DNA of 64,000 nt from Maricaulis sp. (lineage in GTDB: Bacteria; Pseudomonadota; Alphaproteobacteria; Caulobacterales; Maricaulaceae). Position 1 is the stretch's first letter. Every line of letters begins with the position of its first letter. The DNA is taken from the NCBI RefSeq assembly GCF_017643475.1, contig NZ_JAEPNI010000001.1:1302001-1366000 (forward strand), read 5' to 3'. The notes beneath the pieces were generated by a model. The model saw nothing but the letters and a program-made list of their open reading frames with translations. It was not told where the DNA came from and made no database searches. Positions 28,068 through 43,618 of the stretch are shown here, piece after piece. The translations under genes and the position numbers were made by a program.

Positions 28068-28253
28068 GACCTAGCGCGTTGCAAACGGCTTGGGTAGGTG
28101 TGACGTAGGCGTCAAGCTGCAGCGTGCCCAGGGGGAGGTTCGAGACCTTGAATGCGGCACATTGCCCCAATCACCTTTCTCTGCTTGCGAAATTAAGGGA
28201 CTGTAAAGGCGAATCTCTGGGATACTCATCGTGATAGATTAGAGGTGGCCCCG

Positions 28254-28967
28254 ATGGCTGATGGAATGATCCACACGCAGAACTTCTACGCATTCGAATG
28301 GATGACCGGCAAGGTTGCCGATTGCGATCCGAATTTCCCAACAACTCTGCATGCTTGGGACAATCAGGATCTTGATCTTGACGCGACGGATACGGCCTAT
28401 TTCGGTTTTGTCCAGGATGGCGATGCCATCGTGAATACGGATGCGGGCAGTTTCACCCTCAAATCGGGTATGTATTTCTCAGCCAACAATGCCGTCAGTA
28501 TTTCCGGCGGCCGGGGCATCGTCATGGCGCGCGCCAAGCACCAAGCCTTCTTCTCGATTGGTGGTCCGGTCGAGGACAAGGGGCGGCTGAAATATATCGA
28601 TGGCTGTACCGACAGCCTGTTGATCTCACCCATCAAGATGGGTGACCCCTGTCTCAACCTGCTCTACTTCCCGCCTGGCATTGACCAGACGTCGCACACG
28701 CATCCTTCCGATCGGATTGGCGTGGTCTTTTCCGGCAAGGGCGAGTGCGTCACGCCGGAAGGCATCATCCCGCTGGAGCCGGGAGTGATGTTCCGGATCC
28801 CCTATGAGGGGCACCACAAATTCCGGACCTATGACAGCGAGATGCGGGTCATTGCCTATCACCCCGATAGTGATTTTGGCCCCCAGGACGAAGATCACCC
28901 GATGATCAACCGCACGATTGTTGACGGTGTCTCTGCATCCAAGATCGACGCGATCCGAACGAAATAA
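28254..28967 (+). CDS. Cupin domain protein
   Basis: A 237-residue protein with two beta-rich halves. The second contains QTSHTHPSDRIGVVFSGKGE and PYEGHHKFRTY, the two cupin motifs with metal-binding His residues. Binding of Fe or Mn is likely; the substrate is unknown. An AGAGGTGG site precedes the ATG at 28254; an in-frame GTG at 28245 is an alternative. A strong terminator follows directly and also closes the convergent neuB operon. Confidence 0.75.
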   Translation: MADGMIHTQNFYAFEWMTGKVADCDPNFPTTLHAWDNQDLDLDATDTAYFGFVQDGDAIVNTDAGSFTLKSGMYFSANNAVSISGGRGIVMARAKHQAFFSIGGPVEDKGRLKYIDGCTDSLLISPIKMGDPCLNLLYFPPGIDQTSHTHPSDRIGVVFSGKGECVTPEGIIPLEPGVMFRIPYEGHHKFRTYDSEMRVIAYHPDSDFGPQDEDHPMINRTIVDGVSASKIDAIRTK

Positions 28968-29027: not shown

Positions 29028-29957
29028 CTATTCCGCCCGATCATCGGCGGCGTGCTGCGGGCGCAGCCACACACCGTCATTTCCCGTTGTGGGGCCGCCG
29101 TGTTCAGCGTCATAGAGGCCGCGGCGCAAATTGCGACGGCGATTGATTTCGCTCGCTGCTGGCCGCTTCTCGGACGAGCCCAGCGCGACGCACAGATCGG
29201 TGATGTCGTGCGCCATTCTCGCGAATTCTTCCATCTCCATCGCGAAGGGGTGATCCGGCCCGGGATTGGAGCGGTCAAAGGTCACATGTTTCTCGATCAC
29301 TCTGGCACCCAGCGCGATCGAGGCGATCGGAGCCAGGCTGCCTGGCGAGTGGTCTGAGAGGCCCAGGGGCGTGTGCGGAAACGCCGCCCGCAGGGACGTC
29401 AACGCGTTGAGGTTCATATCCTCCCAGGCAGGTGGATAACTTGCTGTACAATGCAACAGGGTAAGCTCGTTACAGCCCTTGGCGCGGAGGAAGCTGGCCG
29501 CCGCCTCGACTTCGTCGAGATAGCTGGCGCCGGTGGACTGGATCACGGCCTTGCCGGTTGCCGCGATCTTTTCCTGCATCGCGCGGAAAGTCATATCCCC
29601 GGATGCGATCTTGTAACGGCTGACGCCGACATCCTCGAGCAGGTCCACCGCTTCCAGAGAGAAGGGCGAGGACATAAATTCGATGCCGTTATCGTCAGCA
29701 CAGGCCTTGAGAGTGTAGTGCCAGTCATCCGGCAAGCCCTGATTGCCGAACGCGGCGTATTTCGGATTGTCGACAATGTCGTCGCTGCCGGGGTCCTTGA
29801 TGCGTCGTGCGATCAGGCCGTCCCGGCTCAGGCTCTGGAATTTGGCAATATCCGCGCCTGCTTTCGCACTGGCTTCGATATAGCGTTTGGCGAGATCGAG
29901 ATCGCCATCATAGTTCGACCCGATCTCCGCGATCAGGGTCACGCGCTCTGCGTTCAT
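29028..29957 (-). CDS. pseI: NeuB/PseI-family nonulosonic acid synthase, short C-terminus
   Basis: A 309-residue TIM-barrel synthase that should condense phosphoenolpyruvate with a 6-carbon amino sugar to make pseudaminic, legionaminic or a related acid. LIAEIGSNYDGDLDLAKRYI, DIAKFQSL, YKIASGDMT, STGAS, LLHCTASYP and LGLSDHSPG are all family motifs. The C-terminal SAF (antifreeze-like) domain, usually another 40 or so residues, is cut short after VWLRP, although a terminator follows within 12 bases, so this is the true end. It overlaps spsF by one base and is last in the operon that starts with flmG. Confidence 0.85.
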   Translation of the reverse strand: MNAERVTLIAEIGSNYDGDLDLAKRYIEASAKAGADIAKFQSLSRDGLIARRIKDPGSDDIVDNPKYAAFGNQGLPDDWHYTLKACADDNGIEFMSSPFSLEAVDLLEDVGVSRYKIASGDMTFRAMQEKIAATGKAVIQSTGASYLDEVEAAASFLRAKGCNELTLLHCTASYPPAWEDMNLNALTSLRAAFPHTPLGLSDHSPGSLAPIASIALGARVIEKHVTFDRSNPGPDHPFAMEMEEFARMAHDITDLCVALGSSEKRPAASEINRRRNLRRGLYDAEHGGPTTGNDGVWLRPQHAADDRAE

Positions 29958-30682
29958 CAGGCAATGTCCTCGAAGCGGTTTTGTTCGGCCACCTGTTCGC
30001 TGATCAGCTTGCAGATGTGTTCTGCATCGATGGGCCAGTCGCGTTCGCTCATCTGTGCGTAAACGGAGCGGACGAAGTCCAGGTCCTCACGTGTGTCGAC
30101 CGAAAAATCATAATCGGGATAGTGAAGCGTGTCGGCGAACCGCACCATGTGTGTCCGGAAGGCTTCATAGTGTTCACGTATGAACAGGGTGACGTGCTCG
30201 CGGTGGCGGGCGGTGACTTCCGGATCAGCGGCAAGATGTTGAAGCACACGCGTTTGCACGACTTCCGCGCGCAAGCCCCGCGGCAGATGCTTGTCAACGG
30301 GCCGCGTGTATTCGGAAAGATTGTCGTGATGGTCCGACACGCATCGCGCAATAATCATGGGGTCACGGAAGGGACTGTCCGATGTAATGCGCACAAGGGT
30401 CGTGGCCAGGGTTCGTTCGGCGACGACGAGGAAGCGATCAAGAACGTCGTGCTCTGAACCACGAATGACGCGAATGCCTTCGGCCTGTCCCAGCTGTTCG
30501 ACGGTATCATCATTGGGGTGTGTCGTCGTGGCGATCACCAGCTCGTCCACGCCTGGAATATTGCGCAAGTGTCGACACTGGTAAGCGAGCAGGGAAACAT
30601 CATCGAAAAGCGGTTCGAGAATCTTCCTCGGAAGCCGATTCGAGCCTGTTCGTGCCTGAATTACCGCGACGGTTCTTTTCAC
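29957..30682 (-). CDS. SpsF/PseF-type sugar cytidylyltransferase
   Basis: A 241-residue nucleotidyltransferase. VIQARTGSNRLPRKILEPL is the CTP-binding signature of the SpsF/NeuA/KdsB group, and VRITSDSPFRDP and PDYDFSVDTREDLDFV hold the acidic metal ligands. In this neighbourhood it is the best candidate for activating the nonulosonic acid as a CMP-sugar (PseF/FlmC role). It overlaps the ATP-grasp gene by four bases and neuB by one. Confidence 0.83.
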   Translation of the reverse strand: MKRTVAVIQARTGSNRLPRKILEPLFDDVSLLAYQCRHLRNIPGVDELVIATTTHPNDDTVEQLGQAEGIRVIRGSEHDVLDRFLVVAERTLATTLVRITSDSPFRDPMIIARCVSDHHDNLSEYTRPVDKHLPRGLRAEVVQTRVLQHLAADPEVTARHREHVTLFIREHYEAFRTHMVRFADTLHYPDYDFSVDTREDLDFVRSVYAQMSERDWPIDAEHICKLISEQVAEQNRFEDIA

Positions 30683-31743
30683 ACCGTGTCCTCTTCATTC
30701 TGGCTGCCTTGGACAGGGATTTCGACATCCATCCAGGTCCGCGTCATCCGAGTCGCATTATACGGAGGAATTCTACCGGGGATATGGTTACCAAGATCTG
30801 GATCATTCGCCAGCATGCGCACGAGCAGGGCCGGAATGTTGAGGCCCGCCAGGGTCATTAGATATCCAAACCCCCACATGCGCGGATTGATCTCCAGCAA
30901 ATAGGCAGGTTCGCCCGCAGCCGGCCGTTTCAGCTCGACTGCCGCAAGACCGTGCCAGGGGCCACTGGCCTGCAGAACATCAAGCCCGGCCTGCATCAGG
31001 ACCGGGTCATCCACGGTTTCCCCGGCGACCGCGACGCCCCCTGTCGGAGGATTGGTCTGCAGCTTGCGGTGCAGGGTGGAGATGATGAGTTCGCCATCGC
31101 GCCACAGCGAGCCGATCGTGTAGACGGTCTCGGCACCGCCCGGAATGTATTGCTGGACCACACAGGGGCCATGATCGCGGTGGGTTTCGGTCCAGATCTG
31201 GGCCAGCTCGATCGCATTGGCCGGATAGCTCACACCGCGTGCACCGCGTGATGTGCGGGGTTTGACGACGCAGGGATAGCCGCCATCCCAGGCATCCAGA
31301 TCGTCGACGCTGTTGGGCTGTAGTGTCGCCGGTATCGGCAGTCCGCGGGCCTTGGCACGGGACAGGAGCTTGCCCTTGTCGAGACCATATTCGAGCACAT
31401 CCGGAGCTGGCACGGGCACACGAATACCGTCCTTTGCCCAGGCGTCCACGACCGGCGCCAGGGCCTTGGCTTCAGCTTCCGAACCCGGAATGATGGTGTC
31501 ACAGCCATGATCTGCCATCACCTTCAGCACAGCGCTCCGATAGGCCTCCGCATCTGCAGCGGAGGGCAGGGTTATCCCGGAACAGCCGGGTTCATACAGC
31601 CCGCCCGCGAGTGCGTTCAGGTCGGCGGCGACAAGCGTCAGCTCTGGATCGGCCTGTCTCAGCGAGCGCAGGGTGCCCAGGCCCGGAGGGGCGCCGACGC
31701 CCGTGACCAGCACGCCACCGGAGATGTTATGAAGCGCACTCAT
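30679..31743 (-). CDS. ATP-grasp ligase, carbamoyl-phosphate-synthase-like
   Basis: A 354-residue protein with an N-terminal Rossmann-like part (GVLVTGVGAPPGLGTLRSLR) and an ATP-grasp domain: YPCVVKPRTSRGARGV, VVQQYIPGGAETVYT and LLEINPRMWGFGYL (metal-binding E and N). Such enzymes join a carboxylate to an amine or thiol with ATP. Its place between a sulfotransferase and a cytidylyltransferase suggests it decorates the flagellin sugar or its precursor, which is inference. ATGA overlaps on both sides show tight coupling. Confidence 0.85.
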   Translation of the reverse strand: MSALHNISGGVLVTGVGAPPGLGTLRSLRQADPELTLVAADLNALAGGLYEPGCSGITLPSAADAEAYRSAVLKVMADHGCDTIIPGSEAEAKALAPVVDAWAKDGIRVPVPAPDVLEYGLDKGKLLSRAKARGLPIPATLQPNSVDDLDAWDGGYPCVVKPRTSRGARGVSYPANAIELAQIWTETHRDHGPCVVQQYIPGGAETVYTIGSLWRDGELIISTLHRKLQTNPPTGGVAVAGETVDDPVLMQAGLDVLQASGPWHGLAAVELKRPAAGEPAYLLEINPRMWGFGYLMTLAGLNIPALLVRMLANDPDLGNHIPGRIPPYNATRMTRTWMDVEIPVQGSQNEEDTV

Positions 31744-32687
31744 TTGCGCCAGAAATCCAGTGATCGTCCGAGCAGCGCCTCGACCTCCCGGATCGAGGGC
31801 TCGAACTGTGTCTGCAGGCGGGCGCGCATGCTGCTGGCCATTGGCGGAATCGAGACCGGCGTGTTGTCGAGTGGCGGGTAAACGCCGTCAGCGGTCTTGG
31901 CGCTGGTGGTGCCGGAAACGGGGGCGATCAGCTCGGCATGAAGCCGATCAAAATCCTCGCCGATACGGTCGTCGAAATGGCCATCGATGATCATCTTCTT
32001 GGCCGCGGGTATGCCACCGGTGTTATAGCGCGCCTCGACTGTGATGGGGTGTGGGGGCAGGTCAAGGAAGTCAACAATCTGGGCGACGGTTCCCGGGCCG
32101 TCTGCGTCGAGGTCATCCTGGAGAAGGACCAGCATGTTCGGGAAGTGAGCCTGCCAGATCTTCAAGCGCTCGGGATAGGTGGAAGTGTGCGCGTAAAGCC
32201 ACTGGAACCCCCAGTTTTCCGCGATACGGCGCGGCTGGTCTTCCAGCGCTTTTTCAAACGAGAGAAATTCTGCATCACGTCGGACATTCTGCAGATAGTG
32301 GGAATAGGTCCGGTCGACGGGATTGCGCAACAGGGCGATAATGCGGGTGTCAGGGCCACACAATTCGCGCGCCCGCGGAGCTGCAAGCGACGCATAGGCA
32401 TAGTAATCCGGCGAGACGTCCCCGACCCGCGCCTGGCCAGAATAATCCGCCATCAGCGCTTGATAGTCAGAGATCTCCGGCGCGGTGTCGAAGTGGTAGA
32501 ATTCGGGCCAGTAGACCTCCCCTTGTCCCACTCGGGAAAAGAAGCGCCCTTCCTTGCGAACCCGGGACAGGAAAACATCGGGATGCTGGCTTAGATAGTG
32601 GTACAGCGAGGTCGTGCCCGCCTTTGGTGCGCCGATGACCAGAAAGTTTGGCCAGATGTCGCCGACTGTGGGTGAGGAATCGGTCAA
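31740..32687 (-). CDS. PAPS-dependent sulfotransferase
   Basis: A 315-residue sulfotransferase. LVIGAPKAGTTSLYHYLSQH carries the 5'-phosphosulfate loop (PKAGTTSL, residues 21-28), and IIALLRNPVDRTYSHYLQNV is the 3'-phosphate binding motif with RNP and S-x-Y. It should transfer sulfate from PAPS to a sugar hydroxyl or amine. It sits inside the flagellin glycosylation operon, so a sulfated glycan is a reasonable guess. It overlaps the ATP-grasp gene by four bases and follows pseG by 38. Confidence 0.87.
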   Translation of the reverse strand: MTDSSPTVGDIWPNFLVIGAPKAGTTSLYHYLSQHPDVFLSRVRKEGRFFSRVGQGEVYWPEFYHFDTAPEISDYQALMADYSGQARVGDVSPDYYAYASLAAPRARELCGPDTRIIALLRNPVDRTYSHYLQNVRRDAEFLSFEKALEDQPRRIAENWGFQWLYAHTSTYPERLKIWQAHFPNMLVLLQDDLDADGPGTVAQIVDFLDLPPHPITVEARYNTGGIPAAKKMIIDGHFDDRIGEDFDRLHAELIAPVSGTTSAKTADGVYPPLDNTPVSIPPMASSMRARLQTQFEPSIREVEALLGRSLDFWRK

Positions 32688-32725
32688 TTCTGTCTCTTCG
32701 CTTCAGGTTTCTGCTTCAAGCCGTT

Positions 32726-33697
32726 TTAGGACGATTCTGGCGGCGACGGCTCACCGGGCCAGGTCGTGTGGATGAATTGGGCGACCCGCTGCGCGCCAAG
32801 CCCGTCAACGCTGGCTGCCATTTTTTCGATCGCGCCCTGGCGGATCTCCACGTCCGTGTGAAACCGGTTGAAAGCCGTGGCGAACTGGCTTTCCCAGTGC
32901 GGCGTGTCCGGAACAATGCTGACGCCAAATCCGAGGGCCTCCCAGCTGCGGGCCCGGTCCAGCTGATGCGGAACAATCGGCAGGCATATCGCGGGCAAAC
33001 GGCAGGCTGCAGCCTCGTGCAGGCTCGTGCCGCCCGCCATGACGGCAAAATCAGCCGCGCGCATTCGCTCTGCAACGTCCTGTGCGCGATGGGGTGTGCC
33101 GCGGCTGTCCGGGCGCAGGATATCCACTTCCAGGTTACGTTGTCGGCAAAGCTCTTCGCAAAGCGCCAGGCAATGGTCGATCAGTTCGCTCTGGCTTCCG
33201 CCCAGGGAGACGAAGACGGATTGCGCCTGCGTGACGGCGACGGGGGGAGTCAGGGCGCTGAACGCAGCAGGCAAGAGCAGATGTTCCGGACCATCAAGAT
33301 AATGCACTCCACGCGTTTCGGGTTGGGGAACAAAGCGTTGTTTGACGATCAGATCGGCCCGCGCAGCGCCGGTCTGGTTGCCCAGCAGTGCGACTGGCAG
33401 GCCGGTGCCCCGCAGCCTTTGCACCAGGATCGGGTCGGTGTCCTTCCAGTCCCCGATCAGCACCGGGGCTTCGTGCCTACGGGCCAGCGTGGAGAGCGCC
33501 TCGAACTCGTCGGTCTGCGTCACAGATACAATCTCGCACAATGCTTTCACATCTGCGGGTAGAACGTCTGGCGTTCGGGTGATCCAGAGCACCTGGCGCC
33601 CAAGCTCGTGCAGCGTGCGCGCCAGCGCGCGGCAGCGTGTGACATGGCCGAAACCAATTGTCGGTCCGCCGTCCGCCCGTATCAGGATGACAGACAT
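32726..33697 (-). CDS. pseG: UDP-2,4-diacetamido-2,4,6-trideoxy-beta-L-altropyranose hydrolase (PseG)
   Basis: A 323-residue GT-B-like hydrolase that removes UDP before the NeuB step. IRADGGPTIGFGHVTRCRALA matches the PseG start, including catalytic His18. LGNQTG, VFVSLGGSQSE and AVMAGGTSLHEAAA correspond to the nucleotide-binding C-domain. In Caulobacter the counterpart is FlmD. It begins three bases after the stop of flmG, so it is in the same operon. Confidence 0.9.
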   Translation of the reverse strand: MSVILIRADGGPTIGFGHVTRCRALARTLHELGRQVLWITRTPDVLPADVKALCEIVSVTQTDEFEALSTLARRHEAPVLIGDWKDTDPILVQRLRGTGLPVALLGNQTGAARADLIVKQRFVPQPETRGVHYLDGPEHLLLPAAFSALTPPVAVTQAQSVFVSLGGSQSELIDHCLALCEELCRQRNLEVDILRPDSRGTPHRAQDVAERMRAADFAVMAGGTSLHEAAACRLPAICLPIVPHQLDRARSWEALGFGVSIVPDTPHWESQFATAFNRFHTDVEIRQGAIEKMAASVDGLGAQRVAQFIHTTWPGEPSPPESS

Positions 33698-33700
33698 GGC

Positions 33701-35488
33701 CTAGCCGGTAGCCTTGACGTGTGCTGCCAGCTCGGTGGCGACCCGCCCCATCGTGTTCTCCCAGTCCTGGAAGCCTTCGCCAAAGAAGGAGCGTGTCTGC
33801 GGATACCAGAGTGACCGCCCGGCGCCCAGCATGGTCCAGGTCGAGGAGCGCGCGTGGATGAACCAGACATTTGCACCACTGGCAGCGGCCAGGTTGGTGG
33901 TCGCATTCATCGGGCCGATGACCAGATCACAGGCAGAAGACAGCGCGGCGACCCCGTCGAGATCCATCTTGAGGTCGATGCCTTCGGGCTGGTGAACCGT
34001 GACCCCGAAATGCTCGCGGGCGATCTCCAGCTCGTCTTCGACCTTGCCATACTGCAGATTGACGAACTCCACACCCTCTACGTCCAGGACCGGTTTCCAG
34101 GCGTCGAATGCCGAGAAAAACCGGGCGCGCCGTGCGTTCATTTTCAGCGATTTCCAGAGGATGCCGACCTTGAGGCCCGGGCCGAACGCGGCGAGTTGTT
34201 GCCGGAACTCTTTCTGGCGATCCGGATCCGGGGTCAGGAAACCTGCATCCTTGGGAAAGCTGTCGACACTGTTGCGAAGCGAGCGCAGGGGCGTCGCCAT
34301 CGGCGTCCAGTAATCGGAGGCCTTGTCGATCTTTGGCAGGACACGCACATCGCGGCCTTCCACATGGGCGGAACGGTGGCTGTAGACCTTCGCCTTGGGG
34401 AAGGACCGGGCGACCAGGTCCACCAATCGATACTCCACGGCGATGCGCAATTCGCCATCCGGGCCGACCGCGTCGATCAGGTCATTGGCCTGGTTGAGAA
34501 ACAGGACTTCATCGCCCAGCCCCTGTTCGCCGATCCAGACCAGAGACTTGTCCCGGATCTCGTCCAGATCATCGCCTTCCCACATTGGACAGTTCATGAC
34601 AAACAGTGTGGCCTGGGTATTGTCGGGGTCGAGGCGAATGCGTTGCGCCTTCCAGCCTTCAGCGAGGCGGCCCGACGCGAGCAATGCCAGTGAGTGCCCG
34701 TGCAGCATCGTGGCCCGGTCGATCTTGTCCTGGGGATTCTTCAGTGCTTCTTCGAAATGCGTGATGGCATTCTCGGGTTCGCCGATCAGCTCGTAGACAT
34801 TCGCGAGGTTGTTATGTGCCCGTGCGAAATTGGGCTTAAGCCGTAAGGCTTCAGTGTAAAAGGGCACCGCGCCGACCGGGTCGCCGGAATCCGACAAAAC
34901 TGTGCCCAGGGAATTCCACAGCTCGGCATTTTCCGGGTGCAGGTAGATGCGCTCTCGTAGCAATTCGATCGCATCTTCAAACTTGGCCTGGTCGCGCAGG
35001 ACACTCGCCAGGTTGATCATGCCGCTCATACTGTCCGGATTGACCTGGACGCAAAGGCGATAGAATTTTTCCGCGGCCTCGAGCATGTCCAGCTTCCAGG
35101 CCACAATCCCCATATTGAGATAGATTTCATCGTCGGCGGGATCGAGTTTCCAGGCGCGTTCATAAAACTCGAGAGCGCGGGATAGTCGTCCCAGGCGAAA
35201 CAGGAGCAGGCCGACCGTATGGTTGGCGAGGGCGGTGTCCGGCCCTGCATCGAGCGCCTTGAGCGCGTGTTTCGCAGCGCCGATATGGTCGCCTTCATCA
35301 GATATCTTGATGGCGCGTTTGCACAGGGCAGCGACCTTGCGATAGGTCGCGCGCTGATCCTTGGGGATCACGCCCAGTTTGGTTTCAGCCTTGAAGTGTC
35401 CGGAATCGCCCACAGCCCCGCGGGTTTCATTCTTTTCCGCTTCAGCCTCGGCGTTGAATTCTTCTAACAGCGCGCTGTCGGTCATCAT
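33701..35488 (-). CDS. flmG: FlmG-like TPR flagellin glycosyltransferase
   Basis: A 595-residue soluble protein in two parts. Residues about 45-270 hold at least six TPR units (for example LEFYERAWKLDPADDEIYLN and VPFYTEALRLKPNFARAHNN). Residues about 290-595 resemble a GT-B/GT41-like glycosyltransferase domain with VWIGEQGLGDEVLF, LKVGILWKS and CDLVIGPMNATTNLAAASG. Caulobacter FlmG has this architecture, lies near flbT-flaF, and attaches pseudaminic acid to flagellins; the context here is the same. Start is one of two adjacent ATGs (35488/35485). First gene of the glycan operon; a CtrA-like box is 52 bases upstream. Confidence 0.8.
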   Translation of the reverse strand: MMTDSALLEEFNAEAEAEKNETRGAVGDSGHFKAETKLGVIPKDQRATYRKVAALCKRAIKISDEGDHIGAAKHALKALDAGPDTALANHTVGLLLFRLGRLSRALEFYERAWKLDPADDEIYLNMGIVAWKLDMLEAAEKFYRLCVQVNPDSMSGMINLASVLRDQAKFEDAIELLRERIYLHPENAELWNSLGTVLSDSGDPVGAVPFYTEALRLKPNFARAHNNLANVYELIGEPENAITHFEEALKNPQDKIDRATMLHGHSLALLASGRLAEGWKAQRIRLDPDNTQATLFVMNCPMWEGDDLDEIRDKSLVWIGEQGLGDEVLFLNQANDLIDAVGPDGELRIAVEYRLVDLVARSFPKAKVYSHRSAHVEGRDVRVLPKIDKASDYWTPMATPLRSLRNSVDSFPKDAGFLTPDPDRQKEFRQQLAAFGPGLKVGILWKSLKMNARRARFFSAFDAWKPVLDVEGVEFVNLQYGKVEDELEIAREHFGVTVHQPEGIDLKMDLDGVAALSSACDLVIGPMNATTNLAAASGANVWFIHARSSTWTMLGAGRSLWYPQTRSFFGEGFQDWENTMGRVATELAAHVKATG

Positions 35489-36767: not shown

Positions 36768-37592
36768 ATGCTTTCTGTGAACACCAACGCTGGGGCCATG
36801 GTGGCCCTGCAGAACTTGAACGCTACGAACCAGTCGATGAACGAAGTTCAGAACCGCATCAATACCGGCCTGAAGGTCGCGGGCGCGAAAGACGATGGCG
36901 GTACATTCGCCATCGCGCAGCGCATGCGTGCTCAGGTAGCGGGTTATGGTGTTGTTCAGCAGAGCCTCGATCGGACCCGTTCTGTTGTCGATGTCGCCCT
37001 GGCGGCAGGCGAGGGCATTTCGGATCTGCTCATCGAAATGAAGGAGAAAGCCCTCGCTGCTTCGGATGTATCTCTCGATGCTGCGTCCCGCACAGCCCTG
37101 AACGAAGATTTCAAGGCCCTGCGTGACCAGATCGGCAAGATGGTATCCACGGCCGAGTTCAACGGTACGAACCTGATCAATAACTCAGTGACCTCGATCT
37201 CCGCCCTGGCTAACCAGGACGGATCGAGCACGATTTCTATCATTGACGAGAACCTCTCGCTCGGTGGTGGTGTTGTGACGCTGGCTGCAACGGCTTCCTT
37301 CGCGTCTGCCGGCGCGGCGGGCACTCTTGCGGGTACGATCTCGACGTCCTTGAACAATCTCAACTCGTCTCTGGCGCGCCTCGGTACGGCCGCCAAGTCT
37401 CTCGAGATCCACAAAGGCTTTGTGCAGCAACTGAGCGACTCCCTGGAGACCGGCATCGGAAACCTGGTCGACGCCGATCTGGCCAAGGAAAGTGCACGTT
37501 TGCAGTCGCTGCAGGTCAAGCAGCAGCTGGGCGTACAGGCGCTATCCATCGCCAACCAGGCGCCGCAGACGATCATGTCGTTCTTCGGATAA
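36768..37592 (+). CDS. Flagellin 1
   Basis: A 274-residue flagellin with conserved ends and almost no variable D2/D3 insert, as in Caulobacter. The N-terminus has VNTNAGAMVALQNLNATNQ and VQNRINTGLKVAGAKDDGG (D0/D1 helices). The C-terminus has ARLQSLQVKQQLGVQALSIA followed by NQAPQTIMSFFG. The middle (Ser/Thr-rich, TSISALANQDGSSTISI) gives possible O-glycosylation sites. A GGAGGAA site precedes the ATG. Own sigma-54 promoter and own terminator. It shares long near-identical blocks with flagellin 2. Confidence 0.95.
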   Translation: MLSVNTNAGAMVALQNLNATNQSMNEVQNRINTGLKVAGAKDDGGTFAIAQRMRAQVAGYGVVQQSLDRTRSVVDVALAAGEGISDLLIEMKEKALAASDVSLDAASRTALNEDFKALRDQIGKMVSTAEFNGTNLINNSVTSISALANQDGSSTISIIDENLSLGGGVVTLAATASFASAGAAGTLAGTISTSLNNLNSSLARLGTAAKSLEIHKGFVQQLSDSLETGIGNLVDADLAKESARLQSLQVKQQLGVQALSIANQAPQTIMSFFG

Positions 37593-37602
37593 CCGTAAGC
37601 GC

Positions 37603-37638
37603 GCTGGGATCGCTTTCGAGCGATCCCAGCATTTTTTT
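37603..37638 (+). terminator. Intrinsic terminator of flagellin gene 1
   Basis: GCTGGGATCGCT, TTCG loop, AGCGATCCCAGC (12-bp perfect stem), then ATTTTTTT. Confidence 0.95.
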
Positions 37639-37714
37639 CTGCGTCCACAGCGGAGGCACGGACCCATGTCTGAATTCGAAAATTAACTCATTATTAACCA
37701 AACATTTTTGCCGA

Positions 37715-37767
37715 CCGGTAGTTTTTGCCGGGCGATTTTTACGTGTTGTTGGGCAGTTTTTGCCGGG
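37715..37767. promoter_or_regulatory. Tandem ftr/FlbD-like enhancer elements of flagellin gene 2
   Basis: Two aligned 18-base elements, CCGGTAGTTTTTGCCGGG (37715-37732) and TGGGCAGTTTTTGCCGGG (37750-37767), are 35 bases apart. A shorter ATTTTTGCCG lies at 37704. They are about 90-140 bases before the sigma-54 promoter, the position of ftr elements bound by FlbD in Caulobacter. This explains most of the 349-base gap 37593-37941. Confidence 0.6.
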
Positions 37768-37855
37768 TGAATGGTTACCCGGAAATTCCGACTCGGCAGA
37801 AAACTCCCAGTGATTCGGGGCGATCCGGGATTAACCAAGTAGGTCAAGCAAAAAC

Positions 37856-37870
37856 TGGCACTTCCTTTGC
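37856..37870 (+). promoter_or_regulatory. Sigma-54 promoter of flagellin gene 2
   Basis: TGGCACTTCCTTTGC is a near-consensus -24/-12 element (TGGCAC and TTGC intact). The start would be near 37881, with a leader of about 61 bases. Confidence 0.88.
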
Positions 37871-37883
37871 TGTGTAAAGCGTC

Positions 37884-37914
37884 GGATCAGAAGATCCAGC
37901 GGACAAAACGTCCG
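37884..37914 (+). promoter_or_regulatory. Leader hairpins of flagellin gene 2
   Basis: GGATC-AGAA-GATCC (37884-37897) and CGGAC-AAAAC-GTCCG (37900-37914). The GGACAAAACGTCC core is identical to the flagellin 1 leader although surrounding bases differ, which argues for selection on an RNA structure. Confidence 0.55.
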
Positions 37915-37941
37915 AGAAACCAGAAAGGAAAGGGCCAAGAA

Positions 37942-38766
37942 ATGGCTACTATCAATACCAATGCTGGCGCCATGGTTGCGCTGCAGAACCTCAACTCTAC
38001 GAACCGTGACATTGAGCAGGTTCAATCTCGCATCAATACGGGTCTCGCCGTTGCATCTGCCAAGGACAATGGTGGTGTTTATGCGATCGCCCAGAAAATG
38101 CGTGCCGACGTGAAAGGCTATGAAGCCGTTGGTAACTCGCTGGACCTGGCTGCTTCGACCGTAGACGTTGCGCTGGCTGCTGGTGAAGCTGTCTCCGATC
38201 TCCTCGTTGAGATGAAAGAGAAGGCTCTGGCGGCTTCGGACGCTTCGCTTGACTCCGCTTCGCGCACCGCGCTGAACGAGGACTTCAAAGCGCTGCGTGA
38301 CCAGATCGGCAAGATCGTTTCGAACGCTTCGTTCAACGGTACCAACCTGATCAACAACTCCGTGACCTCGATCTCCGCACTCGCTAATGCTTCGGGTTCG
38401 TCCACGATTTCCATCGTCGACGAGAACCTGTCACTCGGTGGTGGTGTCGTCACGCTCTCTGCAACGGCTTCCTTCGCGTCTGCCAGCGCAGCGAGCACGA
38501 TTGCGGGTACGATCTCTACGTCCATCAACAACCTGAACGCTTCTCTGGCGCGCCTGGGTACGGCTTCCAAGTCTCTGGGCATCCACAAAGACTTCGTAGG
38601 CAAGCTGTCTGACTCCCTCGAAAAGGGTATCGGCAACCTGGTCGACGCGGACCTGGCCAAGGAAAGCGCTCGCTTGCAGTCTCTGCAGGTCAAGCAACAG
38701 CTTGGTGTACAGGCTCTGTCCATTGCGAACAGTGCTCCGTCCACCATCCTGGGTTACTTCCGTTAA
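37942..38766 (+). CDS. Flagellin 2
   Basis: A 274-residue flagellin. ATINTNAGAMVALQNLNSTN opens the D0 helix, IGKIVSNASFNGTNLINNSV lies in D1, and ARLQSLQVKQQLGVQALSIA followed by NSAPSTILGYFR closes it. Codon use is more biased than in flagellins 1 and 3 (many GCT, TCC, GGT, GTT), as in highly expressed genes, so this may be the main filament subunit. The ATG at 37942 is preceded by AAAGGGCCAAG; the frame is open upstream but lies in the leader. Near-consensus sigma-54 promoter. Confidence 0.95.
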   Translation: MATINTNAGAMVALQNLNSTNRDIEQVQSRINTGLAVASAKDNGGVYAIAQKMRADVKGYEAVGNSLDLAASTVDVALAAGEAVSDLLVEMKEKALAASDASLDSASRTALNEDFKALRDQIGKIVSNASFNGTNLINNSVTSISALANASGSSTISIVDENLSLGGGVVTLSATASFASASAASTIAGTISTSINNLNASLARLGTASKSLGIHKDFVGKLSDSLEKGIGNLVDADLAKESARLQSLQVKQQLGVQALSIANSAPSTILGYFR

Positions 38767-38776
38767 TCCCGGAAAT

Positions 38777-38802
38777 GGAAGGTGGGTTAGCGCCCACCTT
38801 CC
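38777..38802 (+). terminator. Hairpin after flagellin gene 2 (weak terminator)
   Basis: GGAAGGTGGG, TTAGCG loop, CCCACCTTCC: a perfect 10-bp stem directly after the stop. No T-run follows, so it may stabilise the mRNA 3' end or allow partial read-through into the FlaG-like gene. Confidence 0.55.
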
Positions 38803-38834
38803 GCTTCCCGGAAGCTGATGACGGGAACCAATAT

Positions 38835-38852
38835 GGAGGCGCTGGCGCCTCC
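38835..38852 (+). promoter_or_regulatory. Hairpin just upstream of the FlaG-like gene
   Basis: GGAGGCGC-TG-GCGCCTCC ends 17 bases before the ATG at 38870 and close to its AGGAAA ribosome site. It could limit translation initiation. Confidence 0.4.
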
Positions 38853-38869
38853 GCGTCGGCGAATAGGAA

Positions 38870-39262
38870 ATGGCAGAAACAGGATTTAATCCAGCATCTG
38901 TCACGGCGGTCTCGGCCACGGACAATCGAGAGAAGATTGTCGAGCGTAACCGTCAGGACAGCACACGCATCCAGCCTGTCGAGGAACAGGACGGGAGTGG
39001 TGCATCCAAATCACCCACAGAGCAGATGGACCAGTCCGAGCGCCATGAGGTGGTCGAGCAGAAAATCCAGGAACTCTCTGAGACCCCTTTTGCAAACTCG
39101 CGTTTGAAGATCACGCAGGACAATACGTCCGGAGAATACGTCTATCTGATGATTGACGACGAATCCGGGGAGACTGTCCGGCGATGGCCGCCCGAGAAAC
39201 ATTCCGACTTGCTGGAATACCTGCGTACAAGCACGGCAGGCTTGATCAACCAGCGCGTCTGA
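38870..39262 (+). CDS. FlaG-like flagellar protein
   Basis: A 130-residue protein with a disordered polar N-terminal half and a C-terminal domain: ANSRLKITQDNTSGEYVYLM then IDDESGETVRRWPPE and a final helix LLEYLRTSTAG. The pattern 'L.F..D...G...V.V.D..TGEVIRQIPPE' is that of FlaG, an exported protein that affects filament length. It lies directly after flagellin 2 without its own obvious promoter, so it may be expressed by read-through. Confidence 0.8.
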   Translation: MAETGFNPASVTAVSATDNREKIVERNRQDSTRIQPVEEQDGSGASKSPTEQMDQSERHEVVEQKIQELSETPFANSRLKITQDNTSGEYVYLMIDDESGETVRRWPPEKHSDLLEYLRTSTAGLINQRV

Positions 39263-39265
39263 CCA

Positions 39266-39305
39266 CCCGGCAATATTAGCCGCCCGGGCAATCCACGCCC
39301 GGCAA
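39266..39305. promoter_or_regulatory. ftr/FlbD-like enhancer elements of flagellin gene 3
   Basis: Three CCCGG(G)CAA elements (39266-39273, 39283-39291, 39298-39305) are the reverse complement of the TTGCCGGG core before flagellin 2. They lie about 85-125 bases before the sigma-54 promoter. Confidence 0.5.
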
Positions 39306-39318
39306 ATCTAAGTTTTCG

Positions 39319-39345
39319 CCCCTCTCGAAATTCGAGTGGGGTTTT
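39319..39345 (+). terminator. Intrinsic terminator of the FlaG-like gene
   Basis: CCCCTCTCG and CGAGTGGGG pair with one T-T mismatch around AAATT, followed by TTTT. Confidence 0.75.
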
Positions 39346-39388
39346 GTAATTTATTGAATTCATTAAGGTTACTTATCAGTTGGCAAAG

Positions 39389-39403
39389 CGGCACGCCGCT
39401 TGC
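39389..39403 (+). promoter_or_regulatory. Sigma-54 promoter of flagellin gene 3
   Basis: CGGCACGCCGCTTGC matches TGGCACG-N4-TTGC at all but the first base. Transcription would start near 39414. Confidence 0.87.
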
Positions 39404-39421
39404 GCATAGGTCTGCGAATGC

Positions 39422-39437
39422 GCTGCAAAACTGCAGC
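39422..39437 (+). promoter_or_regulatory. Leader hairpin of flagellin gene 3
   Basis: GCTGCA-AAAC-TGCAGC. The stem differs from those of flagellins 1 and 2, but the loop is again A-rich ending in C, and it lies at a similar position between promoter and ribosome site. Confidence 0.5.
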
Positions 39438-39460
39438 AGGACTTTGCGGGAGAATGTCGC

Positions 39461-40294
39461 ATGACGATGAGTGTCCACACCAACACCGGAGCCATGATCG
39501 CTCTGCAGAATCTCAACAAGACCAATGTTGAGATGGATCAGACCCAGAACCGTATCAATACCGGCCTGAAGATTGCCGGTGCCAAGGATAACGCCGCGAT
39601 CTACGCCGTTGCCCAGGGCATGCGGGCTGATGTGAGTGCACTTGGAGCGGTTCAAACCGGCCTCGACCGAGCCGCCACGATCGGCGACGTTGCCCTGGCT
39701 GCCGGTGAAGCGATCTCGGATCTTCTGGTGCAGATGCGCGAGAAAGCCGTCGCGGCGATGGACCCGTCTCTCGATACCTTCTCCCGTGCTGCCTATGACA
39801 GTGACTTCAAGGCCCTGGTTGACCAGGTGCAGGGCATTATCGCAAATGCCGAGTTCGACGGCGCCAATATGATCAATGGTGCGGTTACTTCCGGTATCGA
39901 ATTTCTCGCTGACGCTGAGGCCACCCGGTCGGTTACGCTGAAAGCGCAGGATATGAGCCTGGGCGGTGCTATCATTACCCTCGCGACAACCGCATCGCTG
40001 GGCACCACGACCCTGGCCAGCACTGTGGCCTCGCAGATCCAGACCAGCCTCGACAATGTGAACCAGGCCCTCGCCAATCTGGGGTCTGACGTGAAGAAGC
40101 TGGAGGCTCACTCCGGTTTTGTTGGCAAGCTTATGGACAGCCTGACCAAGGGTATCGGCGACCTCGTTGATGCGGATCTTGCCGTCGAGAGTGCCAAGCT
40201 TCAGGCCTTGCAGGTGAAGCAGCAACTCGGCGTACAGGCGCTGTCGATCGCGAACAGCCAGCCTCAGATCATCCTCAACCTGTTTAACGGCTAA
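39461..40294 (+). CDS. Flagellin 3
   Basis: A 277-residue flagellin that is more divergent. VHTNTGAMIALQNLNKTNVE opens it, NAEFDGANMINGAVTSGIEF is the middle, and AKLQALQVKQQLGVQALSIA followed by NSQPQIILNLFNG closes it. It contains an extra Met-rich stretch and fewer Ser/Thr in the centre than flagellins 1-2. It could be a minor or proximal subunit. ATG 39461 or 39467 are both possible; GGGAG upstream fits 39461. Own sigma-54 promoter, ftr-like elements and terminator. Confidence 0.94.
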   Translation: MTMSVHTNTGAMIALQNLNKTNVEMDQTQNRINTGLKIAGAKDNAAIYAVAQGMRADVSALGAVQTGLDRAATIGDVALAAGEAISDLLVQMREKAVAAMDPSLDTFSRAAYDSDFKALVDQVQGIIANAEFDGANMINGAVTSGIEFLADAEATRSVTLKAQDMSLGGAIITLATTASLGTTTLASTVASQIQTSLDNVNQALANLGSDVKKLEAHSGFVGKLMDSLTKGIGDLVDADLAVESAKLQALQVKQQLGVQALSIANSQPQIILNLFNG

Positions 40295-40392: not shown

Positions 40393-41559
40393 ATGTCCGA
40401 CAACTTCCTTCCCTATGGTCGTCAATCCATCGCCGAGGACGATATCGAGGCCGTGGTTGATGTGCTGAAGAGTGACTGGCTGACCACGGGGCCGGCTGTC
40501 AGCGACTTCGAAACAGCGTTTCGGTCCGCAACTGCTGCGCCGCATGCCCTGGCCTGTTCCAACGGTACAACGGCCTTGCATCTCGCACTGGCCGGGCTGG
40601 GCATCGGCGAGGGGGATGTGTGCATCGTTCCGGCGATTACCTTCCTCGCAACAGCGAATGCCGCGCTTTTCTGCGGCGCCGAGGTTGTGTTCTGTGATGT
40701 GGATGCCGACACCGGCTTGATGACCCAAGCGCATCTGGAAGAGGCGCTGGGACGCGCGGGCGACCGCGCCGCCGCTGTCTTGCCAGTGCATCTTGCCGGG
40801 CAGGCGGTGGACATGGCTGCGATATCGAGCATCGCTCGAACCGCGCAATTGCGGGTCGTCGAGGATGCGTGTCACGCACTCGGGACAGTTCACGCAGGCC
40901 TACCGGTCGGGGCCTGTCATCACTCGGACGCGGCGACATTCTCTTTCCACCCGGTCAAGACGATCGCCGCGGGTGAGGGCGGAATGGTCACAACGCGTGA
41001 TGCGGTTCTGGCAGAGCGCATAGCCCGACTGCGCAGTCATGGCATGGAGCGTTCACCAGAACATCTGGAGCGGGGCGCCGACGAGCCCTGGTGGTACGAG
41101 ATGCAGTCCCTAGGCTGGAACTATCGTTTGACCGATATCCAGGCGGCCTTGGCCCGGTCGCAGATCAAGCGGCTGGATCAGTTCAAGCGTGCGCGCCAGG
41201 CGCTGGCACAACGGTATGACGAGGCGCTCGCCGAGCTGGCGCCGCATATTCTGCCGATCCAGAGGACGCCGGACACGGATTCCTGCCTGCATCTCTACCC
41301 GGTGAGAATTGACTTTGAGGCGGTGGGGGTGACGCGGGCCGAGCTGATGAATGCGCTGCGCCAGCGCGGTATCGGAACTCAGGTCCACTACATTCCGCTC
41401 TACAAGCAACCCTTCTATCGCCAACGCTATGGCCAGACGGCTCTGGACGGTGCGGAGCGCTATTATGCGCGCACATTGAGCCTGCCCCTCTACGCCGGGC
41501 TGGACGCTGACGCTACCGATCGGGTCGTCAATGCGCTGAGCGAAGTGCTGGGGCTCTAG
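40393..41559 (+). CDS. pseC: UDP-4-amino-4,6-dideoxy-N-acetyl-beta-L-altrosamine transaminase (PseC)
   Basis: A 388-residue PLP aminotransferase of the DegT/DnrJ/EryC1 group. LPYGRQSIAEDDIEAVVDVL and LTTGPAVSDFE are PseC-typical, SNGTTALHLAL binds the PLP phosphate, VEDACHALG holds the ring-binding Asp, and FSFHPVKTI carries Lys189 that forms the Schiff base. It makes the second intermediate of pseudaminic acid synthesis (FlmB in Caulobacter). AAAGGAG precedes the ATG. It meets pseB tail-to-tail in a shared CTAG. Confidence 0.93.
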   Translation: MSDNFLPYGRQSIAEDDIEAVVDVLKSDWLTTGPAVSDFETAFRSATAAPHALACSNGTTALHLALAGLGIGEGDVCIVPAITFLATANAALFCGAEVVFCDVDADTGLMTQAHLEEALGRAGDRAAAVLPVHLAGQAVDMAAISSIARTAQLRVVEDACHALGTVHAGLPVGACHHSDAATFSFHPVKTIAAGEGGMVTTRDAVLAERIARLRSHGMERSPEHLERGADEPWWYEMQSLGWNYRLTDIQAALARSQIKRLDQFKRARQALAQRYDEALAELAPHILPIQRTPDTDSCLHLYPVRIDFEAVGVTRAELMNALRQRGIGTQVHYIPLYKQPFYRQRYGQTALDGAERYYARTLSLPLYAGLDADATDRVVNALSEVLGL

Positions 41560-42629
41560 GCTGCCTTGCGCCCGTTGAGGTAATCGCGAAGTTCCTCCGG
41601 GCTGAAATGCTCTCGATTGGTGTGCGAGGCGTAACAGAAGAATTCCGGCACTTCCTTGCCGCCCTCTGCCAGATAGCGTCGCATGATGCGTGCATTATGG
41701 GCAGGCAGGATGGCATAGCGATCCTCCAGTTCCACTGTGGTGCGCGCGTCATCCTCGGGGATCATCACCTCGTGCAGCTTTTCACCCGGGCGGATGCCGA
41801 TGATCTTGATGGGCAGGTCCGGCGCCATGGATTTGGCCAGTTCCACCATGGACATGGACGGGATCTTCGGGACGAAGACCTCGCCTCCGCGGGCCATAGC
41901 CAGGCTGGACAGGACGAAATTCACCCCCTGTTCGAGCGTGATCCAGAACCGTGTCATGCGCTCATCGGTGATCGGCAGGTGGTCGGCACCTTCATCGATC
42001 AGCTTGCGGAACAGCGGAATGACAGAGCCCCGCGACCCCACGACATTGCCGTAGCGGACCACGGAGAAAATCGGTCCGCCTTCCCCGCCCATATGCTGAG
42101 CGGCGGTGAATATTTTATCCGCTGCCAGTTTGGACGCGCCATAGAGATTGATCGGGCTGGCGGCCTTGTCCGTGGACAGTCCACAGACATGACGCACCCC
42201 ACGCCGGATAGCAGCGCGAACAACATTCTCGGCACCGATCACATTGGTCTTGATGCATTCGAACGGGTTGTATTCGGCGATCGGTACGTGTTTCAGAGCG
42301 GCCGCATGGATGACGATGTCGACGTCGCGCATAGCCATGTCGAGGCGGCTTTCATCTCTCACATCGCCAATGAAGTAACGCAGGAACGGATAGTCACTGG
42401 GTGAAAATTCCTGAGCCATTTCGGACTGTTTGAGCTCATCGCGTGAGAAGATGATCAGCTTGCGGGGCTTGTATTCCCGGCAAATGGTTTCAGCGAGTTG
42501 CTTGCCGAAAGAGCCGGTGCCGCCGGTGACCAGGATCACCTTGCCATTCAGGTCCATGCGCGGTTCGCGGAAAGTCCGGTTAAAGGCCATCGAGTTCAGG
42601 GCGTCCATGGGGGGCGTGATGTCAGACAT
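41556..42629 (-). CDS. pseB: UDP-N-acetylglucosamine 4,6-dehydratase, inverting (PseB)
   Basis: A protein of up to 357 residues, an extended SDR. VILVTGGTGSFGKQLAE has the NAD-binding GGTGSFG (36-42), and STDKAASPINLYGASK provides the TDK plus Y-x3-K catalytic set, which replaces the usual SDR Ser. RYGNVVGSRGSVIPLF and RFWITLEQGVNFV are PseB markers. It starts pseudaminic acid synthesis (FlmA in Caulobacter). The usual length is about 335; a start at 42557 (MDLNGK) would match that better than 42629. A CtrA-like box is 50 bases upstream. Confidence 0.93.
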   Translation of the reverse strand: MSDITPPMDALNSMAFNRTFREPRMDLNGKVILVTGGTGSFGKQLAETICREYKPRKLIIFSRDELKQSEMAQEFSPSDYPFLRYFIGDVRDESRLDMAMRDVDIVIHAAALKHVPIAEYNPFECIKTNVIGAENVVRAAIRRGVRHVCGLSTDKAASPINLYGASKLAADKIFTAAQHMGGEGGPIFSVVRYGNVVGSRGSVIPLFRKLIDEGADHLPITDERMTRFWITLEQGVNFVLSSLAMARGGEVFVPKIPSMSMVELAKSMAPDLPIKIIGIRPGEKLHEVMIPEDDARTTVELEDRYAILPAHNARIMRRYLAEGGKEVPEFFCYASHTNREHFSPEELRDYLNGRKAA

Positions 42630-42751: not shown

Positions 42752-43537
42752 ATGACCACAGCTGTGATCGTTCAGGCTCAAACCGATTTTCAAACTGACA
42801 CCTCACCGGTGTTGGCTGATCTGGGCGGGCGAACCGTCCTGAACCGCGTTCTCGATCGTTGTGCATCCATCCCGGGTGTCGATAGCGTGATTTGCTCGAT
42901 ACCGGAAACGGAATTAGAAACCTCGCTGGCGCTGGAGGTTCTACGGGCCGGGCATTGTCTTTCGGTTGGCCCTGCAGGTGATGCCCTGGCCAATCTCTCC
43001 CATGCGGCCAAGGATTATCACGTCGACACGGTTGTCCGGGTCGGTGCCGAGGCGGCCTTTGTCGACGCCCAGCTTGCTGGCCGCGTGCTTGAGCTCATGC
43101 ATGATTCCCGGGCGGATTTCGCAACCAATGCGATGCCGACCGGCTATCCGCGCGGTCTTGAGGTCGAGGTTATTCCGGCCGTATTGCTGCACAAGGCGCA
43201 TGATGTTGCCTCGTCCGACGAGGAACGCGCGGATCCAACCTTGTGGATGCGTCAGCATGCCTATTTGCAGAAAGCCAATCTGCGGGGCCCCGGCGGAGCG
43301 CTCGAAGCGCTGGACTGGCGGGTTTCCAGTGCGGATGGCATCCGGTTCGCGCGGGCGATTTTCGACGAACTGGGCGAGGGCGCTGCAGCGGTGTCCGCCG
43401 CTGAACTTGCGGCGCTTTGCCTGCGTCGCCCGGACCTCCAGCGACCGGTGGAGCATGCTGGCGAGGTAAATCCCGTGGTTCCGTTGCAGGCAGCCGATAT
43501 CGAGAGTGCGATCGAGGCGCTGCGCATTGCGGTTTGA
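42752..43537 (+). CDS. Degenerate SpsF-like cytidylyltransferase
   Basis: A 261-residue protein with the overall order of SpsF/NeuA nucleotidyltransferases: RTVLNRVLDRCASIPGVDSV, a GDALANLSHAAKDYHVDTVV segment and FATNAMPTGYPRGLEVEVI. The N-terminal CTP-binding signature A-R-x-G-S-x-R-L-P-x-K of the paralogue at 29957-30682 is replaced by AQTDFQTDTSPVLADLGG, so catalysis is doubtful. It may be a regulatory or structural partner. A GGAGGAAG site precedes the ATG. It runs into the FlaEY-like gene 81 bases later. Confidence 0.65.
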   Translation: MTTAVIVQAQTDFQTDTSPVLADLGGRTVLNRVLDRCASIPGVDSVICSIPETELETSLALEVLRAGHCLSVGPAGDALANLSHAAKDYHVDTVVRVGAEAAFVDAQLAGRVLELMHDSRADFATNAMPTGYPRGLEVEVIPAVLLHKAHDVASSDEERADPTLWMRQHAYLQKANLRGPGGALEALDWRVSSADGIRFARAIFDELGEGAAAVSAAELAALCLRRPDLQRPVEHAGEVNPVVPLQAADIESAIEALRIAV

Positions 43538-43618
43538 GTGCCGCATTAACCTCATTTCTCAACGCTTTGTTTGTGTTCATGCGCCACATTGGGCAGCAGA
43601 ACCAAAAGGACTGCGTTG

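What the first reader, a model, noticed from the sequence alone, without database searches (positions are those of the whole stretch)
29028..35488. Flagellin-glycosylation operon with built-in sulfotransferase and ATP-grasp ligase
flmG, pseG, sulfotransferase, ATP-grasp, SpsF-type transferase and neuB are all on the minus strand with gaps of 3 and 38 bases and otherwise 1-4 base overlaps. The FlmG/PseG/NeuB part is a known nonulosonic acid pathway. The sulfotransferase and the ATP-grasp enzyme are not part of standard pseudaminic acid synthesis. Their coupling suggests that the flagellin sugar, or its lipid/nucleotide precursor, is sulfated and joined to an amino acid or similar group. This would be an undescribed flagellin glycan.
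Basis: partly seen in the sequence, partly recalled or inferred. Interest (0 to 1): 0.72.

Follow-up and report, generated by a model that had tools for sequence, protein, structure and literature searches.

The report
Maricaulis flagellin sugar operon, rewired
In Maricaulis bacteria the gene set that makes the sugar placed on the flagellum appears to have swapped its usual acetyl-adding enzyme for an amide-forming ligase and gained a sulfate-adding enzyme, which predicts a flagellin sugar not yet described.

Summary
The six-gene operon is real and as described; the genome is a Maricaulis. The order flmG-pseG-sulfotransferase-ATP-grasp-spsF-neuB is kept in 11 of 11 family genomes with an orthologous ATP-grasp (one has an insertion); outside Maricaulis it was seen once, in an Oceanicaulis. 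PseB and PseC lie nearby. In 49 other family neuB loci, an ATP-grasp and a recognised acyl-transfer gene do not share a cluster (0 of 7 loci with ATP-grasp, 33 of 42 without). (2) The operon NeuB lacks the SAF domain in 11 of 11; 48 of the 49 others have it. (3) A second cytidylyltransferase is intact in the 3 genomes with another Pse-type cluster, broken in 3, not found by pseB in 5. Best reading: the ATP-grasp ligase fills the PseH slot, the sulfotransferase adds sulfate, and FlmG puts the product on flagellin. Acyl group, sulfate position and product are not shown. ATP-grasp enzymes in flagellin glycan pathways are known, so this is a new variant of a known kind.

The parts
33701..35488 (-). 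FlmG-like flagellin O-glycosyltransferase (595 aa): N-terminal TPRs, C-terminal part without a family match
   Evidence: 53 of 99 family genomes have a relative at E 1e-30 or better
32726..33697 (-). PseG-like UDP-sugar hydrolase (323 aa), diverging fast (28-52% to the nine relatives other than the near-identical sister)
   Evidence: TIGR03590 76 bits, cut-off 153.6; alignment A3
31740..32687 (-). PAPS-type sulfotransferase (315 aa), similar to heparan sulfate sulfotransferases
   Evidence: PF13469/PF00685; PDB 3rnl 6.8e-28, 1t8t 2.5e-13; K22, K45-E46, R121 and S129 invariant in 11 of 11
30679..31743 (-). ATP-grasp carboxylate-amine ligase-like enzyme (354 aa), proposed to fill the PseH slot
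   Evidence: PF02655; E270, E284, N286 invariant in 11 of 11; fold like L-amino acid ligase, PurT, GAR synthetase, 2pn1
29957..30682 (-). SpsF/CTP_transf_3 cytidylyltransferase, signature QARTGSNRLPRK intact; proposed CMP-NulO synthetase
   Evidence: PF02348 88.9 bits
29028..29957 (-). NeuB-family NulO synthase without SAF domain (309 aa); the only NeuB found in the genome
   Evidence: PF03102
28245..28967 (+). Cupin protein (240 aa), convergent to neuB and seen only in loci with this operon; role unknown
40393..41559 (+). PseC aminotransferase, proposed supplier of the 4-amino sugar
   Evidence: TIGR03588 490.9 bits, cut-off 423.5
41556..42629 (-). PseB 4,6-dehydratase (inverting)
   Evidence: TIGR03589 488.2 bits, cut-off 407.8
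42752..43537 (+). Second SpsF-like protein with lost cytidylyltransferase signature; probably a decayed older copy
   Evidence: PF02348 21.4 bits, cut-off 22.6
36768..40294 (+). Flagellin genes (36768-37592, 37867-38766 and 39461-40294), the presumed acceptors

Best explanation
The operon is a self-sufficient, rewired nonulosonic acid pathway for the flagellins of Maricaulis. PseB and PseC make the UDP-4-amino-4,6-dideoxy-L-AltNAc precursor (by family; inferred). Instead of PseH acetylating the 4-amine with acetyl-CoA, the ATP-grasp ligase joins a carboxylic acid, perhaps an amino acid, to it at the cost of ATP (inferred). The PseG-like enzyme removes UDP, the SAF-less NeuB condenses the substituted hexose with PEP, the SpsF-type enzyme makes the CMP sugar, the sulfotransferase adds sulfate from PAPS to a hydroxyl of the sugar or of its acyl group at an unknown stage, and FlmG transfers the product to flagellin in the cytoplasm. 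Shown here: gene content, conservation, a single NeuB, no detected PseH, absence of SAF, a broken second cytidylyltransferase in the window genome. Inferred: every reaction, its order and the product.
For: Six-gene order in 11 of 11 genomes with the orthologue, among 99 family genomes. Own genome: one NeuB, no PseH over cut-off, none with a PseH profile from the same family (PseH in 2 of 11 operon genomes, G026 and G092, both beside a second SAF-type neuB). In 49 other family neuB loci an ATP-grasp is not seen within 6 kb of PseH, formyltransferase or PglD-like acyltransferase (0 of 7), while 33 of 42 loci without an ATP-grasp have one (Fisher p 1.3e-4, not corrected for kinship; G026's second neuB, which abuts the operon, was counted without the operon's ATP-grasp). 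SpsF2-type gene intact in the 3 genomes with another Pse-type cluster (G026, G046, G092), signature-broken in 3, not found in the stretch by pseB in 5. APS kinase (PAPS supply) in 10 of 11 including own. Ligase-type fold.
Against: No biochemistry. PseH is hard to detect: its curated model is passed by only 1 of 14 control genomes, and Caulobacter flmH can be deleted, even with two paralogues, without the phenotype of the other pathway mutants (passage), so an unrecognised acetyltransferase could do the step. In two alphaproteobacterial neuB clusters of other families (L209, L251) an ATP-grasp lies with a PIG-L-like deacetylase, and in L209 PseG begins with a GNAT-like part (my reading), so there an ATP-grasp is probably a later decoration. 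The ligase's more distant relatives (22-36%) had no NulO gene of the window's kinds nearby except L173 with neuB and a few with pseB- or pseC-like genes. In G026 and G092 the intact SpsF2 lies with the second cluster, not by pseB, which weakens the decay argument. APS kinase was not found in sister genome G056.
Confidence: 0.5

Rival explanations
1. Late decoration: an unrecognised acetyltransferase performs the PseH step, a Pse5Ac7Ac-like NulO is made, and the ATP-grasp and sulfotransferase decorate the NulO or a group attached to it.
For: Caulobacter tolerates loss of flmH; weak GNAT hits exist in the own genome; C. difficile uses an ATP-grasp gene for a cap built on a finished glycan; two clusters with both ATP-grasp and a deacetylase-like gene.
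Against: ATP-grasp and acyl-transfer genes exclude each other in the family census; absence of SAF in NeuB suggests an altered NeuB substrate; the two weak GNAT hits read as generic acetyltransferases (my reading).
Confidence: 0.31
2. The sulfotransferase (and perhaps the ATP-grasp) makes another cell-surface or small molecule and only shares the transcript with the flagellin pathway.
For: No direct link between sulfation and flagellin; weaker sulfotransferase matches occur in 7 of the 88 family genomes without the operon.
Against: Complete synteny, with genes overlapping or nearly touching, across sequences down to about 50% identity, including the Oceanicaulis.
Confidence: 0.13
3. Ordinary pseudaminic acid flagellin glycosylation with two genes of no consequence.
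For: PseB and PseC are standard.
Against: No PseH and no SAF-type NeuB found in the own genome, and the operon's cytidylyltransferase is not of the PseF kind (PseF was not sought genome-wide); both extra enzymes keep presumed catalytic residues in 11 of 11.
Confidence: 0.06

Closest known systems
FlmG pathway of Caulobacter crescentus (PMC7591256, passages only)
   Same: Soluble glycosyltransferase FlmG, NulO made from PseB/PseC-type enzymes, PseG-like hydrolase, NeuB, and a cytidylyltransferase without homology to PseF.
   Different: Caulobacter has FlmH (PseH) with a locus tag next to that of flmG and a NeuB that R322A inactivates (that R322 lies in the SAF domain is recalled); Maricaulis has an ATP-grasp and a sulfotransferase in the operon, no PseH detected, and a NeuB without SAF. 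Caulobacter sequences were not compared directly.
C. difficile type B flagellin sulfonated peptidylamido-glycan (PMC5207245 outline with abstract; PMC5207246 passages)
   Same: An ATP-grasp gene (CDR20291_0245) is required for a sulfur-containing peptidylamido cap on a flagellin glycan.
   Different: The cap holds taurine, alanine and glycine; the authors found no sulfotransferase gene there; the glycan reported is not a NulO.
Shewanella oneidensis sfmABCDE (PMC3765264, passages)
   Same: ATP-grasp_4 protein SfmE in one operon with SfmA, whose N-terminal part resembles PseI, in flagellin modification with a putative NulO.
   Different: A section heading names only SO_3261-SO_3264, not sfmE, as needed for normal motility; no sulfotransferase, PseG or SpsF in the passages seen (SO_3262 was not seen described); substituent is a 236-264 Da moiety with methyl groups.
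Sulfated archaellin N-glycans of Halobacterium salinarum (PMC6591318, PMC11980604; search listing with starts of abstracts only)
   Same: Sulfotransferase-modified glycans on archaeal glycoproteins, archaellins being glycosylated.
   Different: Archaeal, N-linked tetrasaccharide.

Membership tests
Standard pseudaminic acid pathway | PseB and PseC | tested here: met
   Both over NCBIfam cut-offs
Standard pseudaminic acid pathway | PseH N-acetyltransferase | tested here: not met
   TIGR03585 best 27.5 of 93.1 bits (model over its cut-off in only 1 of 14 controls, so insensitive); family PseH profile no match in own genome at E 1e-5. An unrecognised acetyltransferase is not excluded
Standard pseudaminic acid pathway | PseG hydrolase | tested here: inconclusive
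   TIGR03590 76.2 bits, cut-off 153.6
Standard pseudaminic acid pathway | PseI synthase with SAF domain | tested here: not met
   TIGR03586 230.6 bits, cut-off 340.3; no SAF in 11 of 11; NeuB/PseI barrel fold present
Standard pseudaminic acid pathway | PseF cytidylyltransferase | tested here: inconclusive
   Operon protein: TIGR03584 18 bits, cut-off 205.7, SpsF-type instead; PseF not sought in the whole genome
FlmG flagellin glycosyltransferase | N-terminal TPRs and place in the flagellin locus | tested here: met
FlmG flagellin glycosyltransferase | C-terminal glycosyltransferase domain | tested here: inconclusive
   No Pfam match and no credible PDB match; Caulobacter FlmG sequence not available to compare
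ATP-grasp carboxylate-amine ligases | ATP-grasp fold and metal-binding E/E/N | tested here: met
   (role of E/E/N recalled)
ATP-grasp carboxylate-amine ligases | Amide-forming activity | not testable with these tools
   needs assay; the fold is shared with carboxylating enzymes
PAPS-dependent sulfotransferases | 5'-PSB and 3'-PB motifs | tested here: met
   (motif meaning recalled)
PAPS-dependent sulfotransferases | PAPS supply in the cell | tested here: met
   APS kinase in own genome and in 10 of 11 operon genomes
C. difficile type B sulfonated cap | Taurine-containing peptidylamido cap made with an ATP-grasp gene and without a sulfotransferase | not testable with these tools
   Glycan unknown here; a sulfotransferase is present here; sequences not compared (passages only)

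The most novel reading that the evidence does not exclude
A NulO pathway in which acetyl-CoA-dependent N-acylation has been replaced by ATP-dependent amide ligation, with a NulO synthase that has shed its SAF domain to accept the bulkier sugar, yielding an N-aminoacyl (or similar), O-sulfated nonulosonic acid on flagellin. It may be one case of a wider pattern in this family, where the N-acyl gene of NulO clusters is exchanged among GNAT, formyltransferase, hexapeptide acyltransferase and several ATP-grasp types.
Probability: 0.41. Interest if true: 0.66.

Novelty: new variant of a known kind. Interest (0 to 1): 0.52.

Why it matters
It predicts a flagellin sugar with an added negative charge and an amide-linked group, made by a pathway in which one conserved step has been swapped. 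It makes testable how NulO pathways diversify (exchange of the N-acyl enzyme), whether NeuB works without its SAF domain, and what FlmG tolerates as a donor. It would also provide enzymes for making sulfated NulOs.

Tried and rejected
Operon of broad spread: not supported; with the ATP-grasp profile only the own genome of 385 class-level genomes reached E 1e-50, and among 72 loci in named genomes 13 (11 named Maricaulis, one unnamed alphaproteobacterial MAG that is G066, one Oceanicaulis) are close. That scan used two short peptide patterns, so diverged relatives can be missed.

Haloarchaeal relatives of the ATP-grasp as NulO genes: no neuB, pseG, spsF or sulfotransferase of the window's kinds nearby, so they say nothing on function.

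ATP-grasp or sulfotransferase as a common companion of neuB: in 60 stretches around the 61 best other hits of the class sample (of 103) an ATP-grasp was seen in 2 and a weak, different sulfotransferase match (26 bits) in 1.

Cupin as a clue: no relative at E 1e-15 in 384 other class genomes and only weak PDB matches; role left open.

NeuB truncation as a frameshift: rejected, same length class (301-327 aa) and conserved tail in 11 of 11.

Direct comparison with Caulobacter Flm proteins: not done, their sequences were not reached.

Limits of the census: 49 of 58 non-operon NeuB matches were examined; 9 were not fetched, and 2 duplicate rows (L077, L083) were dropped. G026's second neuB was counted as PseH after leaving out the abutting operon's ATP-grasp; kept in, ATP-grasp with acyl gene would be 1 of 8. 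L293, one of the 6 'none' loci, has a PseH-like domain fused to PseG. One formyltransferase hit (L276) is weak (23 bits). Profile seeds came largely from the same family. The SpsF2-type gene was sought only in fetched stretches, not genome-wide; two non-operon genomes (L294, L299) also seem to have broken copies.

Odds: on rechecking I lowered the best explanation from 0.52 to 0.50 and the novel case from 0.42 to 0.41, because the intact SpsF2 genes of G026 and G092 lie with their second clusters and not by pseB; the two first rivals rose by 0.01 each.
Full report
Observation. Family scans confirm sulfotransferase, ATP-grasp, cytidylyltransferase and NeuB; PseG is weak and FlmG is recognised by its TPRs only. 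PseC and PseB lie beyond the flagellin genes and pass their curated cut-offs.

Organism. The window is in a 3.26 Mb genome. The nearest relative, 97% in the ATP-grasp, is the MAG Maricaulis sp. HCUG1438-2.

Conservation. Among 99 genomes of the family, 53 have a FlmG relative at E 1e-30 or better. An ATP-grasp match at E 0.001 is in 35, but 24 of these are weak (67 bits or less); 11 are orthologues, namely the window's and ten at 48-97% identity: all 10 Maricaulis genomes and G029. All 11 keep flmG-pseG-sulfotransferase-ATP-grasp-spsF-neuB. G026 carries four more genes (an SpsF2-like, a PseG-like, PseH and a SAF-type neuB) between flmG and the operon's pseG. One search adds four Maricaulis contigs; three show all six genes and one ends after the ATP-grasp. 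The strong sulfotransferase matches (over 500 bits) fall in the same 11 genomes; 7 of the other 88 have weak ones (80 bits or less).

The undetected PseH. The own genome has one NeuB, the operon's. The PseH model gives only weak hits (27.5 and 24.4 bits, cut-off 93.1), but it passes its cut-off in only 1 of 14 control genomes; the two proteins read as generic GNAT enzymes (my reading). A profile of two PseH proteins from the same family finds PseH in 2 of 11 operon genomes, G026 and G092, each beside a second neuB, and in 3 of 5 other family genomes tried, one of them weakly. G046's second cluster has a formyltransferase (PF00551). A census of 49 other family neuB loci, of 58 listed, gave within 6 kb: PseH 15, PglD-like hexapeptide acyltransferase 14, formyltransferase 3, both of the latter 1, ATP-grasp 7, HisH-like 3, none found 6. 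ATP-grasp with one of the three acyl genes: 0 of 7; loci without ATP-grasp that have one: 33 of 42 (Fisher p 1.3e-4, kinship not corrected). Two choices matter: G026's second neuB abuts the operon and was counted without the operon's ATP-grasp, and L293, counted as none, has a PseH-like domain fused to PseG. The seven ATP-grasps are of two other kinds, from five genera. This is the main argument that an ATP-grasp can take the N-acyl slot. Against a general rule, L209 and L251 from other families combine an ATP-grasp with a deacetylase-like gene, and L209 with a GNAT-like part of PseG (my reading).

NeuB without SAF. In 11 of 11 operon NeuBs Pfam finds no SAF domain; an ordinary NeuB of the same genus has it. 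With a SAF profile made here, 48 of the 49 other family NeuBs examined and 67 of 67 NeuB ORFs in the 60 class-sample stretches have it (the exception, L303, is a 275-aa ORF). The predicted model (pLDDT 78) still matches PseI and NeuB barrels. In Caulobacter R322A inactivates NeuB; that this residue lies in SAF is recalled. Absence of this domain fits an altered substrate.

The second cytidylyltransferase. Beside pseB lies a second SpsF-like gene (42752-43537); a gene of this type by pseB is also seen in many family genomes without the operon. Among operon genomes its signature is intact in G046 (by pseB) and in G026 and G092 (with the second cluster, none seen by pseB), the three with another Pse-type cluster; broken in the window genome, G056 and G066; and not found in the stretches by pseB of G009, G029, G038, G076 and G084. 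G066 has a second neuB, but in a PglD-type cluster. So the operon's own SpsF seems to have taken over; this was not checked genome-wide, and two non-operon genomes also seem to have broken copies (L294, L299).

Enzymes. Presumed catalytic residues are invariant in 11 of 11 for the ATP-grasp (E270, E284, N286) and the sulfotransferase (K22, K45-E46, R121, S129); their roles are recalled. The ATP-grasp model (pLDDT 79.5) resembles 2pn1, L-amino acid ligases, GAR synthetase, PurT and biotin carboxylases, a fold shared by amide-forming and carboxylating enzymes, so the acid used cannot be told. The sulfotransferase is closest to 3rnl and to heparan sulfate 3-O- and N-sulfotransferases. APS kinase is in 10 of 11 operon genomes, own included, and was not found in G056.

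Literature. Searches for sulfotransferase with flagellin and nonulosonic acid, for sulfated flagellin, for Maricaulis with flagellin, for pseudaminic acid with sulfotransferase, and for flagellin, glycosylation, sulfotransferase and Caulobacter listed no description of such a glycan (titles and starts of abstracts, 15 of 112 papers); the library is open-access only. Known relatives in kind: an ATP-grasp gene needed for the taurine-containing cap of C. difficile type B flagellin (abstract and passages) and SfmE of Shewanella, whose own need for motility is not claimed in the heading seen (passages).

Verdict. A real, genus-wide, rewired flagellin NulO operon; the chemistry is inferred. New variant of a known kind.

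Noticed in passing
window 28245-28967 (+): A cupin protein convergent to neuB accompanies the operon in the 12 of 12 loci whose contig reaches that far (71-99% identity where not the window itself) and was not seen among the ORFs called in 28 flmG stretches without the operon; no relative at E 1e-15 in 384 other class genomes.
   Followed up: partly
window 42752-43537 (+): SpsF-like gene beside pseB that has lost the nucleotidyltransferase signature in the window genome, G056 and G066.
   Followed up: yes
window 43571-46378 (+): 935-aa ORF downstream of the flagellin glycosylation genes with repeated segments (by eye) and no Pfam match.
   Followed up: no
window 32726-33697 (-): PseG diverges fastest among the four operon proteins aligned (28-52% to nine of ten relatives) while ATP-grasp and NeuB stay at 48-82%.
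   Followed up: no
L173 7538-9208: A gammaproteobacterial MAG has a broken ATP-grasp of similar type directly before a neuB with a full-length C-terminus.
   Followed up: partly
L102, L076, L078: Some family flmG loci carry a HisH-like gene (in L102 also a HisF-like one; my reading of the sequences) with neuB and pseG, suggesting an amidino-type NulO on their flagellins.
   Followed up: partly
L282 3710-8726, L298 7595-12531: NulO clusters with an ATP-grasp (PylC-like N-terminus PF21360 in L282) and an aminotransferase-like ORF (my reading), in two other genera.
   Followed up: no
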